A DNA stretch of 64,000 nt from an uncultured Deferribacteraceae bacterium (GTDB lineage Bacteria; Chrysiogenota; Deferribacteres; Deferribacterales; Mucispirillaceae): NCBI GenBank assembly GCA_947041165.1, contig CAMRCY010000010.1, forward strand, positions 1-64,000. Direction: 5' to 3'. Under the pieces are notes generated by a model that was not told the DNA's origin, ran no database searches, and saw only the letters and a list, made by a program, of their open reading frames with translations. The translations under genes were made by a program, and so were the position numbers. Of the stretch, positions 3,220 through 64,000 are shown piece after piece (position 1 is the stretch's first letter; each line of letters opens with the position of its first letter).

Positions 3220-4242
3220 ATGAGATTTTTTAGTAGGACGTCATTTATTGTTTGTATGTTTTCTCTCTTCATTATTTCATGTGCGAATAAATCAAGTTAC
3301 CTTCATAAAGCTTGTGATGATGGAGATACTAGTAGCTGTTATAATCTTGGATTAAGGTATTATACAGGCGAAATAGTGTCAATAGATCGTAAAAAAGCAG
3401 TTAAGTTATTTAACAAAGCTTGTGATGATGGACATGTAAAAAGCTGTTATAATCTTGGAGTTATTTACGATAACGGCAAAGGTGTACCAGTAGATTATAA
3501 AAAAGCTAGCTGGCTATATAACAAAGCGTGTGATGGTGGAGTGGCTGAGGGTTGTTATAATCTTGGACTTATGTATTCTAACGGCGAATATGTGCCAGTA
3601 GATTATAAGAAAGCTAGTGAACTATTTGATAAAGCTTGTGATGGTGGATATGTTGGTGGTTGTCTTAATCTTGGAACTATGTATTATGCAGGCGAGGGTA
3701 TGCCCGTAGATTATAAAAAAGCTAGTGAACTATTTGATAAAGCTTGTGATTATGGAGTGACTAGTGCTTGTTATAATCTTGGAGTTATGTACGCTAAGGG
3801 CAAGGGCGTAACAGTTGATCATAAAAAAGCTAGAGAGTTATATACGAAAGCATGTGATGGTGGATATACTAGTGGCTGTTTTAATCTTGGGAATGGTTAC
3901 TATAATGGCAAAGACGTGCCAGTAGATTATAAAAAAGCTAGTGAGTTATATCTTAAAGCATGTGATGGTGGAAGTACTAAAGGTTGTGTTAATCTTGGAT
4001 ATATGTATGCTAACGGCGAAGGTGTACCAGTAGATTATAAAAAAGCAGTTAAATTATATGATAAAGCTTGTGAGGATGGAAATGCAGGTGGTTGTGGCAT
4101 TCTTGGATTTATGTATGCAACAGGTGAACAAATTCCAGTTGATTACGATAAAGCGTTGAGTTTATATAAAAAAAGTTGTGAACTTGGAAGTCAAAAACGT
4201 TGCGATGCATACAAAATATTATACGACGAAATGAAAAAATAA
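3220..4242 (+). CDS. Sel1-repeat (Hcp-like) lipoprotein, type B leader
   Basis: 340 residues. The leader MRFFSRTSFIVCMF ends in FIISC, a lipobox, so unlike its type A neighbours this protein should be lipid-anchored. Eight Sel1 repeats of about 36 residues follow, of the form KACDGG-x3-GCYNLG-xMY-x-NGxGVPVDYKKA, then a C-terminal cap (KSCELGSQKRC). Every repeat has two Cys, as in Helicobacter Hcp proteins. Neighbouring repeats are nearly identical at the DNA level, which suggests recent repeat expansion. It may head a run with the three type A genes downstream, since no terminator is seen until 6793. Hcp-type proteins are usually surface or secreted scaffolds; the partner here is unknown. Confidence 0.85.
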   Translation: MRFFSRTSFIVCMFSLFIISCANKSSYLHKACDDGDTSSCYNLGLRYYTGEIVSIDRKKAVKLFNKACDDGHVKSCYNLGVIYDNGKGVPVDYKKASWLYNKACDGGVAEGCYNLGLMYSNGEYVPVDYKKASELFDKACDGGYVGGCLNLGTMYYAGEGMPVDYKKASELFDKACDYGVTSACYNLGVMYAKGKGVTVDHKKARELYTKACDGGYTSGCFNLGNGYYNGKDVPVDYKKASELYLKACDGGSTKGCVNLGYMYANGEGVPVDYKKAVKLYDKACEDGNAGGCGILGFMYATGEQIPVDYDKALSLYKKSCELGSQKRCDAYKILYDEMKK

Positions 4243-4319
4243 TTTTAACTATTTTATTTATAGTGAGAATATTATATATTGAGGTTTGATAAAATTTTAC
4301 TACAGGGGAATTTAGTGCT

Positions 4320-4928
4320 ATGAAATTTTTTACAATAACAGTTATGACTGTGTTTATATTTTTAGGTATAGTGAGTGTGTCGGTATCTTATGCATATGAT
4401 AAGGCGTTAGTTGATGAATATAGTAAAGAGTGTGAGAAAGGTAACATTGAAAGCTGTGGTGAGCTTGGACTTATGTATGCAGTGGGCGAAGGTGTACAAT
4501 ACGATTTTAAAAAAGCTAGTGAATTACTTAATAAAGCTTGTGATGGCGGGAATATTGATAGTTGTTTTCTGCTTGGAGCTGTGTATTATGAAATTGAAGG
4601 AGTATCAATAAACGATAAAAATATTATTGAAATGTTTAACAAAGCTTGTACAGGTGGATCGACTGAAAGCTGTTTTCATCTTGGAATTATGTATAATGAA
4701 GGCGATGAAGTACCAGTAGATTACAAAAAAGCTAGTGAGCTGTTTGAAAAAGCTTGTGATGGTGGAAATGCTAGTGCTTGTTCTAATCTTGGATATATGT
4801 ATTCTAACGGCGAAGGTGTACCAGCAGATTATAAGAAAGCGTTAAAAGTATTTAAGAAAAGCTGTGAACTGGGATTTCAAGAAGGTTGCGATGGATATAA
4901 AACGATACAAGACGAAATGAAGAAATAA
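4320..4928 (+). CDS. Exported Sel1-repeat (Hcp-like) protein, type A leader
   Basis: 202 residues: a signal peptide (MKFFTITVMTVFIF... cleaved near SVSYA), four Sel1 repeats with paired Cys, and the cap KSCELGFQEGC. An AGGGGA ribosome site lies 9-10 bases before ATG 4320. The 77-base spacer before it is nearly identical to the spacer before the 5669 gene, which points to duplication of a gene-plus-leader block. One repeat is diverged (YEIEGVSINDKN instead of the consensus), so the copies are evolving apart. Confidence 0.85.
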   Translation: MKFFTITVMTVFIFLGIVSVSVSYAYDKALVDEYSKECEKGNIESCGELGLMYAVGEGVQYDFKKASELLNKACDGGNIDSCFLLGAVYYEIEGVSINDKNIIEMFNKACTGGSTESCFHLGIMYNEGDEVPVDYKKASELFEKACDGGNASACSNLGYMYSNGEGVPADYKKALKVFKKSCELGFQEGCDGYKTIQDEMKK

Positions 4929-4985
4929 TTTTAACTATTATATATTAAGGTTTGATAAAATTTTACTACAGGGGAATTTAGGACT

Positions 4986-5591
4986 ATGAAATTTTTTACA
5001 ATAACAGTTATGACTGTGTTTATGTTTTTAGGTATAGTGAGTGTATCAGTGTCTTATGCAGATGACAAGAAGTCGGTTGCAAAATATATTAAAGGGTGTG
5101 ACAAGGGAGATATTAATAGTTGTTATGAACTTGGGTATATGTATGATACAGGTAAAGGCGTAACGGTTGATTATAAAAAAGCAGTTAATTTTTATGATAA
5201 AGCATGTAAAGGTTCTCATGTTGGTGGGTGTTATAATCTTGGATATATGTATGCAATGGGTGAAGGTGTAGAGGTTGATTATAAAAAAGCAAATACGTTT
5301 TATGCTAAAGCATGTGATGGTGGAGTGGCTACTGGTTGTTACAATCTTGGACATAGTTATTACAACGGCATGGGTGTACCAGTAGATTATAAAAAGACAG
5401 TCAAATTATTCAAGCAAGCTTGCGATGGTAAAGAAGCAAATGGCTGTAGCAATCTTGCAGTTATGTATATAGAAGGACGCATTCCAACAGATCATAAAAA
5501 GGCTTTAAGTTTATCAAAAAAGGGCTGTGATATGGGCGATAAAAACAGTTGTGATTTGCATGAATATATATCTGCTGAACTGAAGAAATAA
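4986..5591 (+). CDS. Exported Sel1-repeat (Hcp-like) protein, type A leader
   Basis: 201 residues. The leader is almost identical to that of the 4320 and 5669 genes, then four Sel1 repeats with Cys pairs and the cap KGCDMGDKNSC. Only 57 bases separate it from the previous gene, with no terminator, so cotranscription is likely. Sequence similarity is highest in the first 25 codons and drops in the repeats. A conserved export signal attached to variable repeat bodies would fit a diversified set of surface or periplasmic binding proteins, which is inference. Confidence 0.85.
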   Translation: MKFFTITVMTVFMFLGIVSVSVSYADDKKSVAKYIKGCDKGDINSCYELGYMYDTGKGVTVDYKKAVNFYDKACKGSHVGGCYNLGYMYAMGEGVEVDYKKANTFYAKACDGGVATGCYNLGHSYYNGMGVPVDYKKTVKLFKQACDGKEANGCSNLAVMYIEGRIPTDHKKALSLSKKGCDMGDKNSCDLHEYISAELKK

Positions 5592-5668
5592 TTTTAAATA
5601 TTTTATTTATAGTGAGAATATTATATATTAAGGTTTGATAAAATTTTACTACAGGGGAATTTAGGACT

Positions 5669-6736
5669 ATGAAATTTTTTACAATAACAGTTATGACTGT
5701 GTTTATGTTTTTAGGTATAGTGAGTGTGCCTATATCTTATGCAGATGATAAAGCGTTAATTGAGAAACATAGTAAAGAGTGTGATAAAGGCAACGTTGGA
5801 AGCTGTGCTGAGCTTGGACTTATGTATGCAGTGGGCGAAGATGTACCAGTAGATTTTAAAAAAGCTAGTGAATTACTTAATAAAGCTTGTGATGGCGGGA
5901 ATATTGATAGCTGTGTTGTACTTGGAGATATGTATTTTAACGGTGAAGGTGTATCAGTAGATAAGAAAAAAGCTAGTGAGTTGCATATGAAAGCTAGTGA
6001 GTTACATATGAAAGCTTGTGATGGTGGATTTACTGATAACTGTATTTCACTTGGATATATGTATAGTAATGGTAACGGTGAAGGTGTACCAGTAGATTTC
6101 AAAAAAGCTAATAGCTTATTTGATAAAGCTTGTATGGGTGGGAATGCTTGGGGCTGTGCTAATCTTGGATATATGTATTATGACGGCGAAGGTGTACCAG
6201 TAGATTATAAGAAAGCTAGTGAGCTGTTTAAAAAAGCGTGTGATGGTGGAGATACTGGTGGTTGTTTCAGTCTTGGAAATAGTTATTCTAACGGCGAAGG
6301 TGTAGCAGTAGATTATAAAAAAGCTAGTGAATTATATGAAAAAGCTTGTGATGGTTCTGATTCTTGGGCTTGTTATAATCTTGGAGTTATGTATTATGAA
6401 GGCGAGGGCGTGTCAGTAGATTATAAAAAAGCTAGTGAATTATATAAGAAAGCTTGTGATAGCGGAAATACTGATGGTTGTAACAATCTTGGAGTTATGT
6501 ATGCTAACAGCGAAGGCGTACCAGTAGATTATAAAAAAGCTAGTGAACTATATAAGAAAGCTTGTGATGGAGGAGATGCTATGGGTTGTAGTAATCTTGG
6601 AGTTATGTATGTTACAGGTGAGTATATACCAGTTGATGAGGATAAAGCATTAAGTCTATTTAAAAAAAGTTGTGAGCTTGGTAATCAAAAAGGTTGCGAT
6701 GCATACAAAATATTATACGACGATATGAGAAAATAA
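5669..6736 (+). CDS. Exported Sel1-repeat (Hcp-like) protein, type A leader, with internal duplication
   Basis: 355 residues: type A signal peptide, eight Sel1 repeats with Cys pairs, cap KSCELGNQKGC. Between repeats 2 and 3 a 21-base direct duplication gives KASELHM twice in a row (5969-6010), lengthening one helix by exactly two turns of seven residues. Repeat 3 also has a short insertion (NGNGEG). Both changes keep the frame. It is the last gene of the 3220-6736 run and is followed by a terminator at 6793. Confidence 0.85.
   Translation: MKFFTITVMTVFMFLGIVSVPISYADDKALIEKHSKECDKGNVGSCAELGLMYAVGEDVPVDFKKASELLNKACDGGNIDSCVVLGDMYFNGEGVSVDKKKASELHMKASELHMKACDGGFTDNCISLGYMYSNGNGEGVPVDFKKANSLFDKACMGGNAWGCANLGYMYYDGEGVPVDYKKASELFKKACDGGDTGGCFSLGNSYSNGEGVAVDYKKASELYEKACDGSDSWACYNLGVMYYEGEGVSVDYKKASELYKKACDSGNTDGCNNLGVMYANSEGVPVDYKKASELYKKACDGGDAMGCSNLGVMYVTGEYIPVDEDKALSLFKKSCELGNQKGCDAYKILYDDMRK
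5969..6010 (+). repeat. 21-bp in-frame tandem duplication inside a Sel1 gene
   Basis: Two adjacent 21-base units differing at one base (gtgagttgcat versus gtgagttacat) encode KASELHM twice. Confidence 0.85.
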
Positions 6737-6792
6737 TCTCAACTCATAAGTTCAAAAATTTTAACGTACAGTAATTATTTATAAATATAATC

Positions 6793-6832
6793 AGAGGGTG
6801 TTTTTAATCTATAAAACCCCTCTATTTTTTTT
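6793..6832 (+). terminator. Rho-independent terminator after the Sel1 run
   Basis: AGAGGG at 6793 and CCCTCT at 6818 form the stem, followed by eight T. Near copy of the hairpin at 3098. Confidence 0.8.
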
Positions 6833-6917
6833 GTTCAAAAATTGCTATATTTTTTTAAAAACTATATTATACTATTAGATTAAGATTTTATATGATTTTA
6901 ATAAAGGGGTTTTAGAG

Positions 6918-8156
6918 ATGAGATGTTTTAGTAGGACGTTATTTATTGTTTGTATATTTTCTCTCTTCATTATTTCATGTGCTAATAAATCAAGTTACCT
7001 TCATAAAGCGTGTGATGGTTCTGATACTAGTAGCTGTTATAATCTTGGATTAAAGTATCATGCAGGCGAAGGCGTGCCAGTAGATTATAAAAAAGCAGTT
7101 AAGTTATTTAAAAAAGCTTGTGATGATGGAGTGACTAGTGCTTGTTATAATCTTGGAGTTATGTATGCTAACGGCGAAGGTGTGCCAGTAGATTATAAGA
7201 AAGCTAGTGAACTATTTGATAAAGCTTGTGATGATGGAGTGACTAGTGCTTGTTATAATCTTGGATTAATGTATTATGACGGCAAAGATGTACCAGTAGA
7301 TTATAAAAAGGCAGTTAAGTTATATAACAAAGCGTGTGATGGTGGAGAGGTTCAGGGTTGTTATAATCTTGGATTAATGTATTATGACGGCAAAGGAGTT
7401 CCTGCAGATTATAAAAAGGCAGTTAAGTTATTTAACAAGGCTTGTGATGGTTCTGATGCTAGTGGCTGTTATAATCTTGGATTAAGGTATTATGCAGGCG
7501 AAGGCGTGCCAGTAGATTATAAAAAAGCTAGTCAGCTATATAACAAAGCGTGTGATGGTGGAAATACTAAAGGCTGTAGTAATCTTGGATATATGTATTA
7601 TAACGGTGAAGGCGTGCCAGTAGATTATAATAAAGCTATTGAATTATATACGAAAGCTTGTGATGGTTCTTATGCTATTGGCTGTACTAATCTTGGATTA
7701 ATGTATGATACCGGCAAAGGCGTACCTGTAGATAAGGAAAAAGCAGTTAAGCTATATGATAAAGGTTGTGATGGTGCTCATGCTACTGGCTGTTATAATC
7801 TTGGATTAATGTATGCTCACAGCGAAGGTGTGCCAGTAGATTATAAAAAAGCTAGTGAACTATATGGCAAAGCTTGTGATGGAGGATATGCTACTGGTTG
7901 TTATAATCTTGGATATATGTATGCTAACGGCGAAGGTGTGCCAGTAGATGATAAAAAAGCAGTTAAGTTATATGGTAGAGCTTGTGATGGTTCCTATGCT
8001 AGTGGCTGTACTAATCTTGGAGTTATGTATTATAACGGCGAAGGTGTTCCAGTAGATTATGATAAAGCGTTAAGTCTATTTGAAAAAGCTTGTGATCTTG
8101 AAAATCAAATGGGTTGCGATTTATATAAAAGAATATACGACGAGATGAGAAAATAA
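6918..8156 (+). CDS. Sel1-repeat (Hcp-like) lipoprotein, type B leader, longest member
   Basis: 412 residues. The leader is nearly identical to that of the 3220 gene (lipobox FIISC then ANKSSYLHKACD), followed by ten Sel1 repeats with paired Cys and the cap KACDLENQMGC. Upstream sequence including a putative promoter and the AAAGGGG ribosome site is copied from the 3220 locus, so the two lipoprotein genes arose by segmental duplication and then gained or lost repeats. Bounded by terminators on both sides, so it is probably a single-gene transcript. Lipid anchoring is predicted; function is unknown. Confidence 0.85.
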   Translation: MRCFSRTLFIVCIFSLFIISCANKSSYLHKACDGSDTSSCYNLGLKYHAGEGVPVDYKKAVKLFKKACDDGVTSACYNLGVMYANGEGVPVDYKKASELFDKACDDGVTSACYNLGLMYYDGKDVPVDYKKAVKLYNKACDGGEVQGCYNLGLMYYDGKGVPADYKKAVKLFNKACDGSDASGCYNLGLRYYAGEGVPVDYKKASQLYNKACDGGNTKGCSNLGYMYYNGEGVPVDYNKAIELYTKACDGSYAIGCTNLGLMYDTGKGVPVDKEKAVKLYDKGCDGAHATGCYNLGLMYAHSEGVPVDYKKASELYGKACDGGYATGCYNLGYMYANGEGVPVDDKKAVKLYGRACDGSYASGCTNLGVMYYNGEGVPVDYDKALSLFEKACDLENQMGCDLYKRIYDEMRK

Positions 8157-16988: not shown

Positions 16989-17078
16989 ACGGTTAGCATA
17001 TTTGAAAGTTATATAGTTTATGTTTAGTGATTATGATTACGGTTAGCATATTTGAAAGTTATGTAGTTTATGTTTAGT
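16989..17078. repeat. Direct repeat, about 49 bp, two copies
   Basis: ggttagcatatttgaaagtt then atRtagtttatgtttagt occurs twice back to back (16990 and 17041). It sits in the 364-base gap between the NusG-II and Gx genes; the rest of the gap is simple AT-rich sequence rich in gattatgatta words. Confidence 0.75.
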
Positions 17079-17249
17079 TGTGGCAAATAGTGCAAGTTTT
17101 ACAATCACATTATTTTATTTGTCATATCGCTATCACTCAGTATGTATATATTTCATCAATTAGCTACAATAAAATAGATAGTCACAATCAATATGTAATC
17201 ACGATGAAGCATACGGCTACAATGATAAGTTTATAGAGGATATTTAAGG

Positions 17250-17780
17250 TTGAAAGTTAAAAAATCAATTAGAATTCCAGTATTAATAGGGGTTTTAGGT
17301 GCATTTACAGTTGTTCTTGGTATATTGGAAAATTTTATACCAACGCCAATTCCAGCCGTAAGGTTAGGGCTTGCGAATATACCTATAATGTTTATGCTAT
17401 ACCTATCAACTGCTAGATCTGCGTTTTTATTGATGATAATAAAATCTGTACTAGTGCCAGTATTTTCAGGAAGTTTTATTTTTAAAATGATATTAGGGTT
17501 TCCATCAACATTTATTTCGTTTATAGTAATGGTTGTAATGCTAAAAGTGTTAAAAGACAAAGTAACAGCGATATCAGTAGGTGTTGCATCGTCATTCACA
17601 CATATGTTTATACAGCTTTTAATCGCAAACACGTTATTTATAAATAACATTTTATCAACACCGATAGTGGGAGTTTTATTACTAATATCTGTAATTTCAG
17701 GCATTTTGACAGGTGCATTAACGGAGCTTATTCTTTCAAACAACTCATTTAAACAGTTACTAATAGGTAGCAAGGATTAG
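17250..17780 (+). CDS. Gx transporter family protein (Hpre_diP_synt_I)
   Basis: 176 residues with five or six membrane helices and the family segment AVRLGLANIPIMF. Annotated in databases as heptaprenyl diphosphate synthase component I or Gx transporter; the true substrate is uncertain and it resembles small ECF-type binding units. Begins at TTG 17250 after AGAGGA, with no ATG nearby in frame at the N-terminus. Follows the NusG-II gene, a recurring pairing in other bacteria, and precedes pgk by 74 bases. Confidence 0.82.
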   Translation: MKVKKSIRIPVLIGVLGAFTVVLGILENFIPTPIPAVRLGLANIPIMFMLYLSTARSAFLLMIIKSVLVPVFSGSFIFKMILGFPSTFISFIVMVVMLKVLKDKVTAISVGVASSFTHMFIQLLIANTLFINNILSTPIVGVLLLISVISGILTGALTELILSNNSFKQLLIGSKD

Positions 17781-17854
17781 GTTTTAATAACGCACAAAAT
17801 TTAGATGTATAGAAGTTGTAATACGATTGTAAAAATATAATTGGAGCTACAAAC

Positions 17855-19027
17855 ATGTTAAAAGTTATTAAGGATTTAGATTTAAAAGGCAAGAAAGTTT
17901 TTATAAGAGTTGATTTTAATGTTCCCGTAAAAGATTGTAAAGTTTCAGATGATACAAGAATTGTTGAGGCGTTAGAAACTATTTTATACGCTAAAAACTC
18001 TGGAGCAAAAGTTATACTAGGCTCACATCTGGGCAGACCTAAAGGCGAGAAAAACTTAGATTACACATTAAAAGTTGTTGCAGATTATATTAATGAGAAG
18101 AAGTTTTTTGATATTAAATTTGTAGATGATTGTATAGGTGTAGATGTTGAACACGCTATTGAAGCTATGAACTACGGCGACGTGTTACTTCTTGAAAATC
18201 TACGTTTCTATAAAGGTGAAGAGAAGAACGATAAAGATTTCACCGCTCAACTAGGTGCGTTTTATGATGTATATATAAATGATGCATTCGGCACATCACA
18301 TCGTAAACATTCATCAACTTACGGTTTAGCAGAATTTATCAAAATTAAAGCTGCAGGATTTTTAGTAGAGAAAGAAGCAAAATATTTTGATGCGATTATA
18401 AAATCTCCAGCACATCCGTTTGCAGCGATAGTTGGTGGTGCTAAGATATCTGATAAGATCGGTGTTATCAATTCATTAATAGATGTTGCAGATATTATTC
18501 TGATCGGTGGTGCAATGGCGTACACTTTTCTAAAATATAATGATTACTCAGTTGGCACATCGATGGTAGAAGATGATGCGATGGATACAGTTAGAAAGAT
18601 ATACGAGAAAGCAGATCAGAAAAATGTATCAATAAATCTTCCTTTAGATCACATTGTATCAGACAAGTTTTGTGGCGATCCTGTAATATGTTCAGAGATA
18701 TCAATCCCAGATAACTATATGGGACTTGATATTGGAGAGAGAAGTGTCGCTGCGTATAAAGAATTACTTTTACCGTGTAAAACAGTTCTTTGGAACGGGC
18801 CGATGGGTGTTTTTGAATCAGATGCGTACGCTAAAGGAACATTTAGTATCGCAGATATTTTATCAAAATTAGATAATGCAACAGTAATAGTTGGTGGTGG
18901 TGATTCAGTTTCAGCTGTCAAAAAAGCTGGAGTATCTGATAAGATCGCACACATATCAACAGGTGGTGGAGCATCACTTGAGTATATAGAATTTGGCAAA
19001 CTTCCATGCATAGAAGTTTTAAGATAA
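17855..19027 (+). CDS. pgk: Phosphoglycerate kinase
   Basis: Converts 1,3-bisphosphoglycerate and ADP to 3-phosphoglycerate and ATP in glycolysis. 390 residues, full length. Diagnostic segments are present: RVDFNVPVKD near the N-terminus, LGSHLGRPKG, LLENLRFYKGEEKND, AAIVGGAKISDKIG, the nucleotide site NGPMGVFE and the C-terminal GGGDSVSAVKKAG..STGGGASLEY. Ribosome site GGAG before ATG 17855. Its usual partner gap is not adjacent. Upstream of the ATP synthase operon with a 157-base gap. Confidence 0.97.
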   Translation: MLKVIKDLDLKGKKVFIRVDFNVPVKDCKVSDDTRIVEALETILYAKNSGAKVILGSHLGRPKGEKNLDYTLKVVADYINEKKFFDIKFVDDCIGVDVEHAIEAMNYGDVLLLENLRFYKGEEKNDKDFTAQLGAFYDVYINDAFGTSHRKHSSTYGLAEFIKIKAAGFLVEKEAKYFDAIIKSPAHPFAAIVGGAKISDKIGVINSLIDVADIILIGGAMAYTFLKYNDYSVGTSMVEDDAMDTVRKIYEKADQKNVSINLPLDHIVSDKFCGDPVICSEISIPDNYMGLDIGERSVAAYKELLLPCKTVLWNGPMGVFESDAYAKGTFSIADILSKLDNATVIVGGGDSVSAVKKAGVSDKIAHISTGGGASLEYIEFGKLPCIEVLR

Positions 19028-19184
19028 GTGTATATTGTATCAATATATTTAGGTATAATTTACAGAATTATTAATTCTACTTGATTTTTTATATAATAGA
19101 TGTTATCTTCAAAAGGTACTGTCTTATAGTACTACACTGTTGTGGTCTAACTGCTAAAATAGATCAATAATCTAGGGGAATAGT

Positions 19185-19613
19185 ATGATTCAAATAGGTC
19201 TTGATGAAACTTTCTTTTTTCAATTTATTCTTTTCTTAATAGTAGTATTTGTTTCTAATAAACTTATTCTCAAACCAATGAAAAAAGTTATTGATAGTAG
19301 AGATGATAAAATATCTGCTATGCACGAATCAGTAGCGAACATTTTCAACATATTGGAAAAAGAGAGTAAAGAGTATGAAGAGAAATTAACTAACAGCAGA
19401 AAAGAGTTGTCAGAGCACACCGAATTACTACGTTCAAAAACATTAGCTAAGATAGATGCGATGATATTATCAACTAAAGAAGAGATATCATTAGATAATG
19501 CAAAACATCTTAAAGAGCTTAATAAAATGATAAAAACCACAAAAGAGTCTTTGAAGAAAGATATTCCAGCTATGAGTGAATCAATTTGTGTGCAATTATC
19601 AAAATTTTCTTAA
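19185..19613 (+). CDS. atpF': ATP synthase Fo subunit b' (second b-type stalk subunit)
   Basis: 142 residues: one membrane helix near residues 8-27 followed by a long charged helix, as in b-type peripheral-stalk subunits. It ends in a Lys/Glu-rich coiled coil. The residue pattern after the helix (NKLILKPMKKVIDSRDDKI) is typical of b'. First gene of the operon, 55 bases before atpF. The b/b' heterodimer arrangement is known from cyanobacteria, alphaproteobacteria, Campylobacterota and Deferribacterota. Confidence 0.88.
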   Translation: MIQIGLDETFFFQFILFLIVVFVSNKLILKPMKKVIDSRDDKISAMHESVANIFNILEKESKEYEEKLTNSRKELSEHTELLRSKTLAKIDAMILSTKEEISLDNAKHLKELNKMIKTTKESLKKDIPAMSESICVQLSKFS

Positions 19614-19668
19614 ATAATTATAGATATATCGGATTTGTATATAAATTAGGGATAAGATAGGATATTAT

Positions 19669-20223
19669 ATGTTTAACATTTTAAAATCTTTTGCAGTATT
19701 CATGTTTTTAATAGCTCCTACGTATGCGTTTGCATCGATAGAAGGTGGGCTTGATTGGACAGGATTATACTGGCGTATAAGTATGTTTGTTCTTTTCATT
19801 ATAATACTAGTTCTAGCTATCGGCAAAAAGATATCAAGTATGACTGCAAGTCGTAGAGATGGTATTATAAAAGCATTGCACGGTGCAGAGATGGGATTAG
19901 ATGAGGCGAATATACGTTTAGAAGAGCATCGTATAAAAATGAGCAAATTAGATTCAGAACTTAGCGAGCTTAGTAAGAACGCAAAAGATGCGGCTAAGGT
20001 TGAAATTGATAGCTTGCTTGTAGAAGCAGGTAAACAGATTGAGTTCTTGCGTGAAAAGTCTAAAGCTACAATGAACAATGAAGTTTTAAAAGCTATCACA
20101 GATATCCGTAAAGGTATTACATTGGAATCTATAGATAAAGCAGAAGTTCTTCTAAAGAAAGAGATAAAAGCAGACAAAAGCAGAAAAATAGATATGAATT
20201 ATATTAAAAATATAGGAAATTAA
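19669..20223 (+). CDS. atpF: ATP synthase Fo subunit b
   Basis: 184 residues. A cleavable-looking N-terminal segment (FLIAPTYAFA-SIEG) precedes the membrane helix at about 43-62 (ISMFVLFIIILVLAIGKKI), a layout seen in b subunits of several anaerobic phyla. The rest is a long amphipathic helix that binds delta at the top of F1. Ten bases separate it from atpH. Confidence 0.9.
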   Translation: MFNILKSFAVFMFLIAPTYAFASIEGGLDWTGLYWRISMFVLFIIILVLAIGKKISSMTASRRDGIIKALHGAEMGLDEANIRLEEHRIKMSKLDSELSELSKNAKDAAKVEIDSLLVEAGKQIEFLREKSKATMNNEVLKAITDIRKGITLESIDKAEVLLKKEIKADKSRKIDMNYIKNIGN

Positions 20224-20233
20224 TCGAGAATAT

Positions 20234-20770
20234 ATGAAAAATAGAGTTTTATCAAAAAGATACGCTGAAGCATTATTTGATGAGTTAAAAACAGCTCCTT
20301 TAAAGAAGAAAGTTTTAGCTGAGATGGATTTAGTTTCATCAATGTTATCAGAGTCGGCTGATTTTGAACGTTTAGTTTCTAATCCTATGATATCTGTTAA
20401 TGACAAATCGAATGTTTTTAGAGAAATTTTCAAAGTTAAAAAGATGAACGAACAGTTTTTAAATCTAACTTTAATTTTAATAGAGAATAATCGTCTATCA
20501 TTACTTGCATCTATTCCAGAGTATTTTAAATCTAAAATGATAGAGTCACAAGGTGAAGTGTTAGTTGATGTTACATATGCAACTAAACCAACTCCGACGA
20601 TTAAGAAAGATGTAGAGAAGAGATTAACTGAGATCACTAAGAAGAAAGTTCTTGTTAATGAAATGGTAGATGCATCATTGATAGCAGGCGTAAGAATTCA
20701 ATACGGTTCTATCCTTTACGATGCAACGGTTAAGGCAGCGTTAGATGAAATGAGAGAAGAGTTCTCATAA
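20234..20770 (+). CDS. atpH: ATP synthase F1 subunit delta
   Basis: 178 residues, normal length. The conserved start RYAEALF (here KRYAEALFDELK) and the C-terminal ASLIAGVRIQYGSILYDATVKAALDEM match OSCP/delta. It links the peripheral stalk to the F1 head. Tightly spaced after atpF. Confidence 0.93.
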   Translation: MKNRVLSKRYAEALFDELKTAPLKKKVLAEMDLVSSMLSESADFERLVSNPMISVNDKSNVFREIFKVKKMNEQFLNLTLILIENNRLSLLASIPEYFKSKMIESQGEVLVDVTYATKPTPTIKKDVEKRLTEITKKKVLVNEMVDASLIAGVRIQYGSILYDATVKAALDEMREEFS

Positions 20771-20859
20771 TTGTTTTAAATCAAGTTATTTTGTAAGAAA
20801 GTTGTTAATATTATTTTAAATAAGATAAAAATAAATTACCTCGATAGGAGTTTAGCTTT

Positions 20860-22365
20860 ATGCGTATAAAAGCGGAAGAGATCAGTCAAATTATTCGTAG
20901 CCAGATCAAAAATTTTGATAAAATGGTATCGAAGAAAGAGGTTGGAACAGTTATCAGTACTGGAGACGGTATTGCAAAAGTTTATGGTTTAGAAGGAGTT
21001 ATGGCTGGTGAGCTAGTTGAACTTCCTGGCAAACTTTTTGGAATGGTTCTAAACTTAGAAGAAGACAGTGTTGGTATAGTTGTTATGGGTGATGCCTCTT
21101 CATTGAAAGAGGGTGACGTGGTTAAGCGTACAGGTAGGATTGCTTCTGTTCCAGTAGGTCCAGAGCTTATCGGTAGAGTTGTTGATGCATTAGGTCAACC
21201 TATTGATGGTAAAGGTCCTATCAACACGAAGAAAACAGATGTAATTGAAAAAGTTGCACCTGGTATTATTCTACGTAAACCAGTTAATCAGCCAGTACAA
21301 ACGGGGATAAAAGCGATTGATGCAATGATACCTATCGGTAGAGGGCAGAGAGAGTTAATTATCGGTGATAGACAAACTGGTAAAACAGCTATCGCTATAG
21401 ACACTATAATAAATCAGAAAGGTCAAGATTTAATATGTGTATATGTTGCGATCGGACAGAAACGATCAACTGTTGCACGTGTTGTTCAAACATTAGAGAA
21501 GCATGGCGCTATGGAATATACAATTATCGTTGCAGCTACTGCATCAGATCCATCACCATTACAATTTATGGCACCACTAGCAGGTTGTACGATGGGTGAA
21601 TATTTTAGAGATAACGGTCAACATGCACTACTTATATATGATGATCTATCTAAACATGCTGTTGCATACCGTCAGATGTCATTACTATTAAGACGTCCTC
21701 CAGGAAGAGAAGCGTATCCAGGTGACGTTTTCTATCTTCACTCAAGATTACTAGAGCGTGCTGCTAATATGTCAGATGAAATGGGTGGTGGTTCATTAAC
21801 TGCTTTACCTATTATTGAAACACAAGCGGGTGACGTTTCTGCATATATTCCTACAAACGTAATATCAATTACTGATGGACAGATATTTTTAGAAACAGAT
21901 CTATTTAACTCAGGTTTCAGACCAGCGGTTAATGCAGGTATTTCGGTATCAAGAGTTGGTGGAGCTGCACAGATCAAGGCTATGAAACAGGTAACTGGTA
22001 GATTAAGATTAGATCTTGCAGATTATCGTGCAACAGTAGCATTTGCTCAATTCGGATCAGATTTAGATGCGGCTACTCAAGCGCAGTTAACTCGTGGTAG
22101 CAGAATGATGGAACTTCTTAAACAGAGTCAATATAAACCAGTAAAAGTTGAAGAGCAGGTTGCAATATTCTTCGCTGGTATTAACGGATTTATGGATGAT
22201 GTTCCATTAAATAAAATAGCTAAATTTGATGAAGAGTACATAAAGTTTCTTAAAACAACTAAAACTGGTATTTTGGAAGCTATTCTTAAGACTAAAACTA
22301 TTACAGATCCACTTTCAGATAAGATGAAAGAGGCGTTGAAAAAGTTTAAAGATCAATTTATTTAA
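20860..22365 (+). CDS. atpA: ATP synthase F1 subunit alpha
   Basis: 501 residues. Non-catalytic nucleotide-binding subunit: Walker A GDRQTGKT near residue 170, the alpha signature [22 protein letters not shown], and [26 protein letters not shown]. Preceded by GGAG and 89 bases after atpH. Confidence 0.98.
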
Positions 22366-57561: not shown

Positions 57562-57590
57562 AAGCCCTGTAATTTGCAGGGCATTTTTAT
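57562..57590 (+). terminator. Rho-independent terminator after the porin gene
   Basis: GCCCTG (57564) pairs with CAGGGC (57577), followed by ATTTTTAT. It separates the porin from the convergent Kiwa genes. Confidence 0.85.
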
Positions 57591-57624: not shown

Positions 57625-58626
57625 TTAGATAGAATTATTTGAGATATTAGATAACTTATGTGGTATCTTGTGAGTAAGTCTATCTTTTGCTAAGGAGTCG
57701 TAGCTTTGTTTTGTAAGTTCTGATTGCAGGAAGTCATCATTTAATAATTTGATAAAAGCAATTTTTGATGCTTTGGTGTCTAAAATTATTTTCAAGTTAT
57801 CGTGAGAATATTTAAACTTACCGATAAGTCCTGAATGCGTCTTGCTAAATTTTATAATTTCACTACTATCAATATTATTATTTAAGATAAATGAATTGTT
57901 ATTCGCTTTTGCTAACTTCTTAGCTAGTGAGGTATCAGTTTTGAAATCTTTTAAAACTTGTATTTCATTCATTAAGTTCTTAGTATTAATTTTACCAATT
58001 ACCTCATCAAATTGTTCCATAATCATTTCTGTAAAACCGAAGTGCTTTTCTAAAATATCAAGCTTCGAGATATAGGTGTTGTCTTTTATCTGCATTATTT
58101 GAAAGTCACCATTTAGACGAAGTATATCGTCACCATCCAGCTTAACCAAGCGTTCTGCTTTTTTGATAAGCAGAAATGTACCTCTTTTAATCAACGAAAT
58201 AGGATAATGTTTCTTGTAAATTAATAATCCCTGATCCATTGTTCCTAGATAAATAAGGAACCCTTTTAAATTAGCAAGGCTATCACTGTTAAAAGAAAAA
58301 TTTGGCAATGTGTGAGCTTCATGAATATTAAAATCTTTAATAAAGTGTAATTTCTCGGGATATTTACTATAATCATACTTGTAAATTGCATCCTTCCTTT
58401 GATCAGAGATTGATAAGTTTACAACACTCATCTCTTCATTTTCAATAACCACATGTTTTAGAGTAGTTGAAAATATATGCTTTATACCTTTTGATGTTTC
58501 CCCATCCTCAATATCAGCACTTTTAATTGTGCTATTCTCGCCATCCCCAAGAATTAAGAACACTCGAGCATTGTCACTACTATCGATAACTGTTTTTACA
58601 TATTGTTTTAATTCTTCAGTGTTCAT
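57625..58626 (-). CDS. kwaB: Kiwa anti-phage protein KwaB (DUF4868)
   Basis: 333 residues. The central part (about 110-215) reads LANLKGFLIYLGTMDQGLLIYKKHYP... then LLIKKAERLVKLDGDDILRLNGDFQIMQIKDNTYI, which fits DUF4868, the defining domain of KwaB. KwaB is a soluble partner that binds the membrane protein KwaA and acts on phage DNA processes, from published work on Kiwa. ATG 58626 has AAGGAGAA before it and shares one base with the TAA of the upstream gene (TAATG), so the pair is translationally coupled. Identified by pattern memory, not by a search. Confidence 0.75.
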   Translation of the reverse strand: MNTEELKQYVKTVIDSSDNARVFLILGDGENSTIKSADIEDGETSKGIKHIFSTTLKHVVIENEEMSVVNLSISDQRKDAIYKYDYSKYPEKLHFIKDFNIHEAHTLPNFSFNSDSLANLKGFLIYLGTMDQGLLIYKKHYPISLIKRGTFLLIKKAERLVKLDGDDILRLNGDFQIMQIKDNTYISKLDILEKHFGFTEMIMEQFDEVIGKINTKNLMNEIQVLKDFKTDTSLAKKLAKANNNSFILNNNIDSSEIIKFSKTHSGLIGKFKYSHDNLKIILDTKASKIAFIKLLNDDFLQSELTKQSYDSLAKDRLTHKIPHKLSNISNNSI

Positions 58627-59207
58627 TAATTCTCCTTTTTTACGTACCAAATATTTTGTTCAAGTTCAATCCAGGTTACTCTATTGTTTTTTTTCAAGGT
58701 GTCTAAACTAATCACCAAGATACTGTTCTTAATACTATCAATTTCTATCTCTATTTCATATAATTTATAATTCAATAAAGCTAGTGTAGGGTTTGCTAAA
58801 TATAATTTTGTTTTAATAAACAAAATTCCAATAATAATTAGTAATATAAATAAAACAATAGTGTTTTGTGCTTCACTTATATCGATAGATATTAAGGGAA
58901 TAGTGTACGTAATTAAAAAAGTGAGAGGTTCAAAGCTTTTATCCTTTATTTCTAAGATATTATATGAAGGGTTCATAGTTCCTTTGAAAATAAATTTAAT
59001 ATTTAGGTAAGTGATAAATGAATAAATGATAAAGACAAAAAATATCATAGGGACGATATTAGCACTTAATAGTTTTTTCCACCCAATAAAAACTGCATCT
59101 GATTGAAAGGAAATAGGTATATTGATTGTTAAACAAGTTATTAAGAAAAAAAACACTAAAAGAGATAATATATATAATTTAACTTTCAGACAGTTGTTCT
59201 TACTCAA
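58626..59207 (-). CDS. kwaA: Kiwa anti-phage membrane protein KwaA
   Basis: 193 residues with four predicted membrane helices (about 10-30, 48-70, 94-110, 113-132) and a soluble C-terminal tail ending near a Trp-rich segment. Size, topology and the position just upstream of a DUF4868 gene match KwaA, the inner-membrane sensor of the Kiwa system. The primary sequence alone would not identify it. It starts at TTG 59207 after a full AGGAGGT ribosome site. Confidence 0.7.
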   Translation of the reverse strand: MSKNNCLKVKLYILSLLVFFFLITCLTINIPISFQSDAVFIGWKKLLSANIVPMIFFVFIIYSFITYLNIKFIFKGTMNPSYNILEIKDKSFEPLTFLITYTIPLISIDISEAQNTIVLFILLIIIGILFIKTKLYLANPTLALLNYKLYEIEIEIDSIKNSILVISLDTLKKNNRVTWIELEQNIWYVKKEN

Positions 59208-59795
59208 TATGGCTACCTCCTAGCATCTTCCATTAGATAATATTTATAACTCATCAGTTATTTGATTTTATAAAACATTCTAATTATCGATACATATAAC
59301 TTTAAATATATTTGATAGATAGTTTATATAAATTCTTGCTTTTGATAAATCCATAACCTTTAGTTATAACTACTTAACTATTCTTTATTTATTGGAAAAA
59401 TATGTAACTTCAATTATTTTCAATACTAACATACACAATATGTTTATTGCAATGTATTTGTTAAATAGCAATATTAATTAAATTAATTCAAATGATGTGA
59501 CTAACTAGAATTTTAGATTGTATTGAATTGCGATAATTTTATAACTTATTGTGTGATAGGATAGAGATTGAGTATAGAGCAGTTTGTTGCAGTTGAGTTA
59601 ATATAGAGTTTATTAAAATGATTTTAATAAATAAAACAGATGAGTTTGATAATTGTAACAACCTATAATTATAAAAATGATATATAATGAGAATTGTTTT
59701 AGATCACGTTAATATAAATAGATCAAGGTATATCAATAAAGAGAAAAAATCAGGACATGCTTATAGATGGTTTTATTATATAGCCGTCCTAAATC
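59208..59795. other. AT-rich gap between Mor-like gene and Kiwa genes
   Basis: 588 bases, very AT-rich. No ORF of useful length. It should contain the promoter of kwaAB and possibly an end of the Mu-like element, but I cannot recognise transposase-binding repeats or a target-site duplication. Confidence 0.4.
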
Positions 59796-60089
59796 TCACT
59801 CTTCTTGATCTAAGAAATTTTCTATTGTGATATACTTTGCAGATACAATATTTCTAATTTGCACCTCAGTAAGATTATGTTTAATTGCAAGTTCTGCTGT
59901 ATTAAAACCAGTGTGTTCTTTTCTGATTTTACTATTTCTATCTTTACGATATAAAGCATCAACTTTAGGGATATATTGAATAGTGCCACCGATTTTTTTT
60001 GATAATTCTATCGCTTTGTCGATACCGATAATCTCAACTACATCCCTATAATTTTCTGCAAAATCATCTATAATTATTTTATTAGACAT
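59796..60089 (-). CDS. Mor transcription activator family protein
   Basis: 97 residues. The pattern IGGTIQYIPKVDALYRKDRNSKIRKEH followed by TAELAIKHNLTEVQIRNIV matches the Mor/C family of phage Mu middle and late gene activators: a dimerisation strand with YIP, then a helix-turn-helix. AAGGTGA ribosome site before ATG 60089. Located two genes after the MuB-like gene, it probably activates element genes. Confidence 0.82.
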   Translation of the reverse strand: MSNKIIIDDFAENYRDVVEIIGIDKAIELSKKIGGTIQYIPKVDALYRKDRNSKIRKEHTGFNTAELAIKHNLTEVQIRNIVSAKYITIENFLDQEE

Positions 60090-60196
60090 ATAAATTCACC
60101 TTGTTCATTATTAGAGTATGCAACTGATTTTTGATTTTCAAAATCATAATACAATGTTAATTTTTTCTCACAACTATATGGTATTATTTTTTTCAT
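60074..60196 (-). CDS. 40-codon small protein between MuB-like and Mor-like genes
   Basis: ATG 60196 follows GGAGAG at good spacing. The 40 codons start MKKIIPYSCEKKLTLYYDFE and end in FICLIK before TAA. It overlaps the Mor-like start by 16 bases and starts six bases after the MuB-like stop, so the three genes form one tight run. No family recognised. Confidence 0.55.
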   Translation of the reverse strand: MKKIIPYSCEKKLTLYYDFENQKSVAYSNNEQGEFICLIK

Positions 60197-60201
60197 AATT
60201 A

Positions 60202-61437
60202 TTACTCTCCTAAATTGATATTATTTACAACATCAGCTGTTATAGTTTTTTCTCCATAATTAGCACAATAGTTCATCAAACGTATCATTATATTATTGAT
60301 AGCAAGCGGATAAGCGAATGATATTTGATTGCCTAATCTATCTGTTTTAGATAAACCTTTTTCAACGAGTGAGATCGCATCAACACTTATTATTTTAGTG
60401 ATATCGCCTTTTGCCATACGCACACGATGAGTAATATAATCGGTTACTTGTTTATCAATAGGATAAACTTTTGCATGTGTAATTCTTGCAGCAACTTCAC
60501 GAATATCTGTATTTGCAGAACCGAACAATCTTGTTTCAAGCTCACTTTGACCAACTAAAATAATACCTAGTAATCTTGTTAATCCATCTTTCATTTCCCA
60601 TATTCTTTTTAAAAATTTAAGAGTCATTACAGGTATGTCATGAGCTTCCTCGATTATAAGAATTGTTTTTTCATTATTAACAGATCTATCAATTAACAGC
60701 TTTTTAACTTGTCTTGATAACGCTTCAATACCTGATTTTGGTTGCTGTTCTGTTAGATCATAAACACAGGCTTGAAGTATTAATTTTGCATTAAGTCTAG
60801 TTTTATCTATCGACTCTGGATATATGACATGACATTTTTTATTAACCTTTAGCTCTTCAATAAATTTAGATAGTATTGTTGTTTTACCACTTCCTACTTG
60901 TCCTGTTATAACTGCAAACCCTCCAAACTCTGCAACTTCTTTCATCACTTCTAGTGCGTATGCATGAGGAGATGCAAGATATATTTCTGACTCTCTTTTA
61001 ATATCTAGTGAGAACGGATTATTTTTTAATCCAAAAAACTGTAATGTGTGTTGCTCTAACATAGTAACCTCCATAAAATAATTTAGTAACTCTTCTTCTG
61101 TTTTAATATCAATATCTACTTTGTTTTTATCATTGTCTTTGTCGCTATTTCGAGATAGATTATTAATCTGAAGTTCTCTCCAAATATCACTTGTTGCGAT
61201 GTTTTTTGCTAATAGAATATGTTTAAAGTTTTCCTCTACAGCTCTTTCAATCTTCTCTCTAAAATTAGTAACTCGTTTTAACTCTGTTCCATTATTTATG
61301 AGATACCCTATTGATGTTTTACTTATATTAATTTCATAACTAGCAAGTATCTTTGCGAACTTTCCAACGGAACAGCTTGCCGTATTTAAAATAGTTTTAA
61401 GAATTATTGGTGATGGTTTTAATATTACTCTTGGCAT
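60202..61437 (-). CDS. MuB-like AAA+ transposition ATPase
   Basis: 411 residues. N-terminal helix-turn-helix-like region, then an ExeA/MuB-type AAA+ domain: FFGLKNNPFSLD (typical lead-in), Walker A GQVGSGKTT at about 179-187, Walker B TILIIEEAHD at about 250-259. In Mu, MuB binds target DNA and activates MuA. GGAGG ribosome site; starts 66 bases after the transposase stop. Confidence 0.88.
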   Translation of the reverse strand: MPRVILKPSPIILKTILNTASCSVGKFAKILASYEINISKTSIGYLINNGTELKRVTNFREKIERAVEENFKHILLAKNIATSDIWRELQINNLSRNSDKDNDKNKVDIDIKTEEELLNYFMEVTMLEQHTLQFFGLKNNPFSLDIKRESEIYLASPHAYALEVMKEVAEFGGFAVITGQVGSGKTTILSKFIEELKVNKKCHVIYPESIDKTRLNAKLILQACVYDLTEQQPKSGIEALSRQVKKLLIDRSVNNEKTILIIEEAHDIPVMTLKFLKRIWEMKDGLTRLLGIILVGQSELETRLFGSANTDIREVAARITHAKVYPIDKQVTDYITHRVRMAKGDITKIISVDAISLVEKGLSKTDRLGNQISFAYPLAINNIMIRLMNYCANYGEKTITADVVNNINLGE

Positions 61438-61503
61438 ATATTAGCCTCCATTATTTTTAGCTGTATCTCTTTTTATAGTTTTATTGTTTCTAATTTAATT
61501 CTT

Positions 61504-63258
61504 TTAAGCATTTAATTGTTTAGTGTTTACATCTTTATCAATCATTTTATGTATGTCAGTTAAGGTTATGGATATCGGAACTCCAGCAGGGTAGAGGCTT
61601 TTAATCTTACTGTTTATTATAGGTGTAATTCTTCCATATTCTGCAACATATTGACGTAGGATTTCGTTAATAGGTATCAATCTATAGTCATCAGGATTTG
61701 GCACAACATCATATTTTTTCTGCTCTTTAGTAAGTGGCAAATGGATATTAGGTGTAATTGATTGCACACCTTTTCTTCTAATAGCAGATATATTATTTTG
61801 CGTTGTTTTAACTTCATACTCACCAATATTTGAAGGTGGTATAGATTGCCTTTTACCCTTGTTACCTTTATATTCTACGCCCCATTTTTCATATGCTATT
61901 AGTTCAAGTTCTTGTTTACTCTTCTCCAACTTAGTTAGAGGAAGAGATTTGTAATCACCAAATATTACTGCATCATCAGTTATATGACGTCCATATTTAT
62001 CAGCTATTAATGGTTTACAAGTCCAAACTTTTCCATCGTAATGTATATCAATAGATGGGTACTCATATGCGTTTGCTTTAATAATTACTCTTTGTTTTAC
62101 AGCATTAACATCAGGACATTGATAGATACGTCCATCGTAACTAATTCTACGATTTCCATCAGCTTTACGAGTAACAGCAGGTTTATGTTGTAATGTTTTA
62201 AATAATATTTCATTAGGAACAATTCTTAATTCTTTATCTTTAATATTGAGCCATAAATCAGTTCTACGTTTATTATTTCTAAATACTTTATTGCAATTAA
62301 AGTTGATACACCAATCAAGTGCTACTTTATTTAACATCTCTAAATTATCAATTTTCATACGTTTGAGATTGCTTTCAAAATTGTTACCTATGATACGCAT
62401 AAGCCCTTCAACCATACCTTTAGCTCTAGGATTACCTGCTTGATGTAACTCAATTTTAACATCAAGTGCTTCAAATAAATTTTGCATAACTTTTGAACGC
62501 AGTATCGATCCTTTGTCAGAGTATAAAATATTTGGAACACCATGAATTTGATACTTACCTTTATAATCAACATTAAGCGTTTTAAATATTAACGAACTTT
62601 TCTCCTGAAAAGCTCTATAGAAAAAATCTGCACCATCTTCTGCACGTTCTCCAGATGTATAATAATACCAGAAGAAAAACGATCCAGAACAGTGATCAAC
62701 TATTACAAATCGTAGCAGTTCTTGTCTAATCTTTTTAGCTTCTTTTACAATTTTATTTTTATAAAATAAACGATCAACATCACGTTCAGCAAGTCCACCT
62801 TTATTTTTAAGATGCCACTGCAAACAGTTCGTAATATCAAACTGCCAAACATGATTAGGATATAAACTAATTAATTGTTTATGTGGAGTAGGTAGGGATA
62901 ACGACTTTCTATCAAGGTTACGCATTTGCAATAAAGTGCATATACGAGCATATCCTACAGGTATAATAATTCCAGATTCAATCATATCTGAAACAGCCTT
63001 TTTAACAGAGTTTGTAAAATCACCATTTAACCTTTTTGATATATTAACTCTTGTCGCAATTTCATTAAGAATATCATCAGTAACTTTTGTCTCACCTTTG
63101 TCTACCCTTACAGCACGTTTACGCACGCCAGCATTGTTTAGTGAACGCCATATTGATTGACGAGCTACACCGTAAAATTCTGCAAGTTGATCGATACGAT
63201 TTGATAGTTCTCTACCTTTAAGTAAATGTATTTCATTTAAAATATAATTAATATCCAT
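61504..63258 (-). CDS. MuA-like DDE transposase
   Basis: 584 residues. N-terminal helix-turn-helix (EFYGVARQSIWRSLNNAG), then an integrase-type RNase H core with the catalytic triad D141 (WQFDIT), D248 (YSDKGS) and E284 (AKGMVEG), spacing D-35-E. A Mu-type C-terminal region follows (RRISYDGRIYQCP). The gene looks intact. Ribosome site AGAGG before ATG 63258. Confidence 0.9.
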   Translation of the reverse strand: MDINYILNEIHLLKGRELSNRIDQLAEFYGVARQSIWRSLNNAGVRKRAVRVDKGETKVTDDILNEIATRVNISKRLNGDFTNSVKKAVSDMIESGIIIPVGYARICTLLQMRNLDRKSLSLPTPHKQLISLYPNHVWQFDITNCLQWHLKNKGGLAERDVDRLFYKNKIVKEAKKIRQELLRFVIVDHCSGSFFFWYYYTSGERAEDGADFFYRAFQEKSSLIFKTLNVDYKGKYQIHGVPNILYSDKGSILRSKVMQNLFEALDVKIELHQAGNPRAKGMVEGLMRIIGNNFESNLKRMKIDNLEMLNKVALDWCINFNCNKVFRNNKRRTDLWLNIKDKELRIVPNEILFKTLQHKPAVTRKADGNRRISYDGRIYQCPDVNAVKQRVIIKANAYEYPSIDIHYDGKVWTCKPLIADKYGRHITDDAVIFGDYKSLPLTKLEKSKQELELIAYEKWGVEYKGNKGKRQSIPPSNIGEYEVKTTQNNISAIRRKGVQSITPNIHLPLTKEQKKYDVVPNPDDYRLIPINEILRQYVAEYGRITPIINSKIKSLYPAGVPISITLTDIHKMIDKDVNTKQLNA

Positions 63259-63273
63259 AGCTAAATAATACCT

Positions 63274-64000
63274 CTACTTCTCATCAATATTATGCTTTCT
63301 AAAATCTCGAGGAAGTAGCATTCTATCTGATTTTTCTATTTCATTATCATCCATATAAAGTCTATCAAGATACACACCACTGTTATTTAATTTCACTCTT
63401 ATATCATCCAGTAACTTAAAACTTAACACAAGACAACCGCCAAAAATATGTTGATTTCTCTCTGATAAATCGATGTCAGTTAGTTTGTTCATATCAAAAA
63501 ATATTGATGTTATTCTGTCCTCTATAGATTTTAATTCTTTAAATGCAGGCAGTTCACATTCATCTATGTTAAACTCTTTTCCAGTAGTATAATTATTGAT
63601 TTTACGTTTATACTCCTCAGACTCAAGGCGTGCATCTTCACGTCCTTTTGATAACTCTCTATTTAATTCTTCTTTAGCAATAATTACTCTTTCTTTCTCT
63701 TTTATGATCTCGTCTTTAGCTTCAATTACAGTAATAAGTGCCTCTTTAAGTTTATCTGTATCAGCGAGGTTTACGATCTCTCCATCGATTGATATTGCAT
63801 CATCAAGTATTTCAAACGTACCTGATTTGGTTGAAGATTTTAATTTTCTAAGTTCTTTATATCCGATTCCAAGATTGCCGATGGTCAGTAAAAACTGTTC
63901 TCCAAATGTTTCAAGATTAGATAAATCTTCATCTATCTTTGATCTTGTGTAGCCTATTGATATACAATATTTTTCCCAAGTTTCAGCCCCTTTAATTTCT
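63274..64000 (-). CDS. Coiled-coil protein of a Mu-like element, partial (runs off right edge)
   Basis: The frame is open from 64000 to TAG 63274-63276, 242 codons, so the N-terminus is missing. The visible start reads ..EIKGAETWEKYCISIGYTRSKIDED, similar to phage proteins that begin with WxxYCxxxGxSR-type segments, then a long Glu/Lys coiled coil and a compact C-terminal part. 15 bases before the transposase. Possibly an early regulatory protein; family not recognised with confidence. Confidence 0.65.
   Translation of the reverse strand, partial: EIKGAETWEKYCISIGYTRSKIDEDLSNLETFGEQFLLTIGNLGIGYKELRKLKSSTKSGTFEILDDAISIDGEIVNLADTDKLKEALITVIEAKDEIIKEKERVIIAKEELNRELSKGREDARLESEEYKRKINNYTTGKEFNIDECELPAFKELKSIEDRITSIFFDMNKLTDIDLSERNQHIFGGCLVLSFKLLDDIRVKLNNSGVYLDRLYMDDNEIEKSDRMLLPRDFRKHNIDEK

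What the first reader, a model, noticed from the sequence alone, without database searches (positions are those of the whole stretch)
57625..59207. Kiwa anti-phage pair identified by DUF4868-like KwaB and four-helix KwaA
The two overlapping minus-strand genes match Kiwa in order, size, topology and the central DUF4868-like segment. Seen directly: four hydrophobic helices in the first protein, TAATG coupling, and the LIYKK..P and LKGFLIYLG-type pattern in the second. Known: Kiwa (KwaA + KwaB) is a membrane-linked defence system. If right, it may be a diverged homologue in an uncommon host phylum.
Basis: partly seen in the sequence, partly recalled or inferred. Interest (0 to 1): 0.8.

Follow-up and report, generated by a model that had tools for sequence, protein, structure and literature searches.

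The report
Ordinary two-gene Kiwa phage defence
This is a normal copy of Kiwa, a known two-gene bacterial defence against viruses, found in a bacterial group where it is rare (1 of 51 sampled species of its phylum), so it extends Kiwa's known range but is not a new kind of system.

Summary
Confirmed: 57625-59207 (-) is a canonical kwaA-kwaB (Kiwa) operon. KwaB (333 aa) passes NCBIfam NF041623 (305 bits, cut-off 200) and Pfam PF16162 KwaB (111 bits, cut-off 26.3). KwaA (193 aa) passes NF041622 (170.5 bits, cut-off 100). The best PADLOC models are KwaB (5e-90) and KwaA (8e-58). Both match solved Kiwa proteins in the PDB by sequence (about 1e-30 and 1e-35) and by predicted fold (6e-21 and 1e-17). 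The genes overlap by one base (TAATG), each with a ribosome-binding site. In 13 of 13 relatives with the region intact, KwaA lies directly upstream of KwaB. Identity to relatives is 33-41%, so this copy is diverged, but the C-terminal KLLNDDFLQSELT stretch of KwaB is invariant. KwaB was found in 1 of 51 species genomes of the window's phylum and in none of 14 other genomes of its family, which suggests horizontal acquisition. Kiwa sits about 340 bp outside the inferred left end of a Mu/B3-like element, in a slot filled differently in related species; I judge it neighbour rather than cargo. Most likely function is the published one: a KwaA membrane sensor with KwaB binding incoming phage DNA. 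New member of a known kind; low interest.

The parts
58626..59207 (-). kwaA, 193 aa, membrane protein with four predicted helices and a C-terminal beta domain; TTG start with AGGAGG at 59221-59216
   Evidence: NF041622 170.5 bits (cut-off 100); PADLOC KwaA 8.1e-58; PDB 9mrg 9.6e-36; fold match 9mrx_A 1.2e-17, TM 0.76
57625..58626 (-). kwaB, 333 aa, KwaB (DUF4868) DNA-binding effector; ATG overlaps the kwaA stop (TAATG)
   Evidence: NF041623 304.9 bits (cut-off 200); PF16162 111.1 bits; PADLOC KwaB 4.8e-90; PDB 9o0i 1.3e-30; fold match 9mtn_K 5.7e-21
57564..57582 (.). terminator-like hairpin between the convergent porin-like gene and kwaB; T run on the + strand
   Evidence: pattern scan, 1 found against 0.4 in shuffles; consensus match only
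59548..64000 (-). left part of a Mu/B3-like transposable element next to Kiwa: inferred left end at about 59548, Mor 59796-60089, MuB 60202-61437, MuA 61504-63258, early gene from 63274 on. Not part of Kiwa
   Evidence: Pfam Mor, rve, AAA_22; PHROGs transposase and late activator; homology with G002 stops just outside Mor

Best explanation
A complete, intact Kiwa anti-phage operon, acquired horizontally by this lineage and lying in a variable chromosomal slot beside a Mu-like element. Inferred working, by homology to studied Kiwa: KwaA sits in the inner membrane as a tetramer and senses phage attachment or injection; KwaB dimers bound to it engage the incoming DNA and block its replication and late transcription without cutting it. 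Shown here: the two families, gene order, translational coupling, predicted fold and conserved residues. Not shown: expression, complex formation and anti-phage activity of this copy.
For: Curated equivalog models for both proteins exceeded; PADLOC and Pfam agree; PDB sequence hits are only Kiwa chains; predicted folds match only solved Kiwa structures at E<=0.001; KwaA directly upstream of KwaB in 13 of 13 relatives with the region present; invariant blocks across phyla; kwaB frame open without stops in the genome; only 1 of 51 phylum genomes and 1 of 15 family genomes carry KwaB. Mechanism of studied Kiwa: review PMC12904381; a Streptococcus thermophilus Kiwa shown active against phages, PMC11514479.
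Against: 33-41% identity to the relatives compared, so trigger and phage range may differ. No functional data. Predicted models are of middling quality because only 14 sequences were used (KwaB pLDDT 79, KwaA 71).
Confidence: 0.96

Rival explanations
1. Kiwa is cargo of the neighbouring Mu-like element, carried between Mor and the true left end and moved by the element's transposase.
For: Same strand as the MuA-MuB-Mor operon and only about 590 bp beyond Mor; porin and Kiwa are absent from the matching slot in G002 and G003; no target-site duplication was found by eye at the inferred end.
Against: In G002, G008 and G009 the element stops just outside Mor with flanks that differ from one another. 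The G000 stretch 59548-59610 aligns with those ends while sequence further out does not. The elements seen in the relatives carry no Kiwa: KwaB is absent from their genomes.
Confidence: 0.15
2. A decayed or repurposed Kiwa-like pair that no longer defends.
For: It has the longest branch among the KwaB proteins compared.
Against: Both frames are full length, both have ribosome-binding sites and the intact overlap, and the invariant residues are kept.
Confidence: 0.04

Closest known systems
Kiwa (KwaA-KwaB), structures 9mrx, 9mtn, 9nyu, 9o0i, 9mrg, 9mrr
   Same: Both protein families, gene order, one-base overlap, KwaA membrane helices plus beta domain, KwaB fold and invariant C-terminal residues.
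   Different: 33-41% identity to the genome relatives compared; in the structural alignments to PDB entries 26-28% (KwaB) and 36-39% (KwaA); residues 146-167 of KwaB are poorly modelled; the host lineage otherwise lacks Kiwa in the genomes held.
Kiwa of Methylophaga, Achromobacter, Pseudomonas, Aeromonas, Paenibacillus and Emticicia plasmids
   Same: Same two-gene arrangement where checked; full-length homology.
   Different: The chromosomal ones share 39-98% KwaB identity with each other, whereas the window copy shares 35-40% with all of them.

Membership tests
Kiwa | KwaB (DUF4868) protein | tested here: met
   NF041623 304.9 bits over cut-off 200; PF16162
Kiwa | KwaA membrane protein | tested here: met
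   NF041622 170.5 bits over cut-off 100; PADLOC 8.1e-58
Kiwa | kwaA immediately upstream of kwaB, same strand, coupled | tested here: met
   TAATG overlap; same arrangement in 13 relatives
Kiwa | KwaA has four membrane helices and a C-terminal soluble domain | tested here: met
   AlphaFold model and match to 9mrx_A, TM 0.76
Kiwa | KwaB fold as in the solved structures | tested here: met
   Foldseek 9mtn_K 5.7e-21, TM 0.64-0.70
Kiwa | KwaA tetramer bound by KwaB dimers; KwaB binds DNA | not testable with these tools
   Known only for studied homologues (PMC12904381)
Kiwa | protects cells from phage | not testable with these tools
   needs a phage assay

The most novel reading that the evidence does not exclude
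Kiwa here is carried by a Mu-like transposable element that also bears contractile-tail and conjugation-type genes, so that a defence pair travels with a transposase rather than with a plasmid or an ordinary prophage.
Probability: 0.1. Interest if true: 0.35.

Novelty: new member of a known kind. Interest (0 to 1): 0.13.

Why it matters
It adds a diverged Kiwa from a lineage in which it is otherwise unseen in the genomes held. That is useful for mapping the host range of Kiwa and for finding residues conserved at about 35% identity. It opens no new question on its own.

Tried and rejected
Related Kiwa in viral contigs and phage records: none found. Plasmids: three weak-to-moderate hits, the best 38% identical, from Emticicia. 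Flanking repeats that would mark a separate Kiwa island: only short two-copy repeats of 13-16 nt. A target-site duplication around the Mu-like element: none seen by eye. The original Kiwa paper is not held. KwaB tree: the window protein sits on a very long branch (4.66), so its placement among donors is not informative. Promoter scan: fewer matches than shuffles, so uninformative. Literature search for Kiwa with Deferribacter gave mostly papers on deep-sea vents and the crab genus Kiwa.

Full report
Observation. The two reported genes are exactly where stated: kwaA 59207-58626 and kwaB 58626-57625, both on the minus strand. The stop of the first and the start of the second share one base (TAATG), and each gene has a good ribosome-binding site. 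The KwaA TTG start is preceded by AGGAGG at 8 nt.

Identity. KwaB is hit by NCBIfam NF041623 'anti-phage protein KwaB' (equivalog, 304.9 bits, cut-off 200), Pfam PF16162 KwaB (111.1 bits, cut-off 26.3) and PADLOC KwaB (4.8e-90). KwaA is hit by NF041622 (170.5 bits, cut-off 100) and PADLOC KwaA (8.1e-58). No other family is a serious competitor. Against the PDB, the only significant sequence hits are KwaB (9o0i, 9mrx, 9mtn, 9nyu) and KwaA (9mrg, 9mrr, 9mrx, 9o0i). AlphaFold models built from 14-sequence alignments (KwaB pLDDT 79, KwaA 71) have as their only matches at E<=0.001 the solved Kiwa chains.

Relatives. A scan of GTDB genomes gave 14 KwaB loci, in Pseudomonadota and Paenibacillaceae. 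In the 13 where the upstream region is held, KwaA lies directly upstream with a few bases of overlap; the fourteenth (L017) is cut by the contig end. The window proteins share 35-40% (KwaB) and 33-41% (KwaA) identity with these, less than most of these share with each other. The C-terminal KLLNDDFLQSELT and AKD residues of KwaB and many positions of KwaA are invariant.

Distribution. KwaB occurs in 1 of 15 genomes of the window's family and 1 of 51 of its phylum. Together with low G+C (27.9% against 32.0% for the window; 4.9% of equal-sized stretches of the window are as low) this suggests horizontal gain, though the G+C evidence is weak.

Surroundings. On the same strand lie Mor (59796-60089), a MuB-like ATPase (60202-61437) and a MuA-like transposase (61504-63258); the transposase is nearest to B3-type Pseudomonas phages among phage records (25-30% identity). 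Past the window the contig runs to 66284, with a repressor, and ends in an AACC/AACT repeat. The element appears to resume at the start of contig C1 of the same genome, which shares that repeat (C10 against C1) and carries tail genes colinear with species G002. In G002 the element is an insertion relative to G003, where the two flanking genes lie together.

Is Kiwa inside the element? In G002, G008 and G009 the element ends a few hundred bases beyond Mor. In the window, similarity to those ends fades at about 59548, leaving about 340 bp and then Kiwa. The stretch from the lyase-like gene (ends 56226) to about 59548, holding a porin-like gene and Kiwa, has no counterpart in G002 or G003, where an unrelated membrane-protein gene fills that position. 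So I place Kiwa in a variable chromosomal slot beside the element. No target-site duplication was found, so cargo is not excluded.

Mechanism. From the literature read here: KwaA forms inner-membrane tetramers bound by KwaB dimers, is activated at the phage injection site, and KwaB binds the incoming DNA and blocks replication and late transcription without cleaving it (PMC12904381). A Streptococcus thermophilus Kiwa gives phage resistance when cloned (PMC11514479). That this copy works the same way is inferred from homology.

Verdict. The finding is a new member of a well-described system.

Noticed in passing
window 59548-64000, then G000:C10 to 66284 and G000:C1:1 to about 39540 (L002, L061, L062): Mu/B3-like early region (transposase, ATPase, Mor, S24-type repressor) apparently continuing into contractile tail genes (DUF2586 sheath-like, baseplate J) with no capsid or terminase recognised among the open frames read, then Trb-type secretion genes (TrbL, TrbI, CagX/TrbG, TrbE, a VirB11-like ATPase) and ParB. 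It could be a tail-like particle locus next to a conjugation island; other species have one module without the other.
   Followed up: partly
window 60089-60202: Relative to G002, the element in this genome lacks the Mu Gam-like gene and most of GemA (about 935 bp); only a GemA C-terminal remnant is left between MuB and Mor.
   Followed up: partly
L072 and L073 (G003:C11; joined coordinates 17061-22153), L045 791-2211 (G002:C10): Variable slot between a lyase-like gene and a zinc-ribbon/ankyrin region: porin plus Kiwa plus element in the window's genome, membrane-protein gene plus element in G002, membrane-protein gene alone in G003.
   Followed up: yes
G000:C1:12083-17211 (L061) and G002:C10:22260-25445: Repeated near-copies of tail-fibre-like and tail-assembly-like genes, possibly a switchable fibre cassette.
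   Followed up: no
G000:C1:36202-38303 (L062): Tandem near-identical genes (start MINKII[TP]DSSFYNITKSSN) between ParB and the inferred right end of the element, absent from G002.
   Followed up: no
window 3220-8156: Tandem run of Sel1-repeat-like lipoprotein genes of similar sequence.
   Followed up: no
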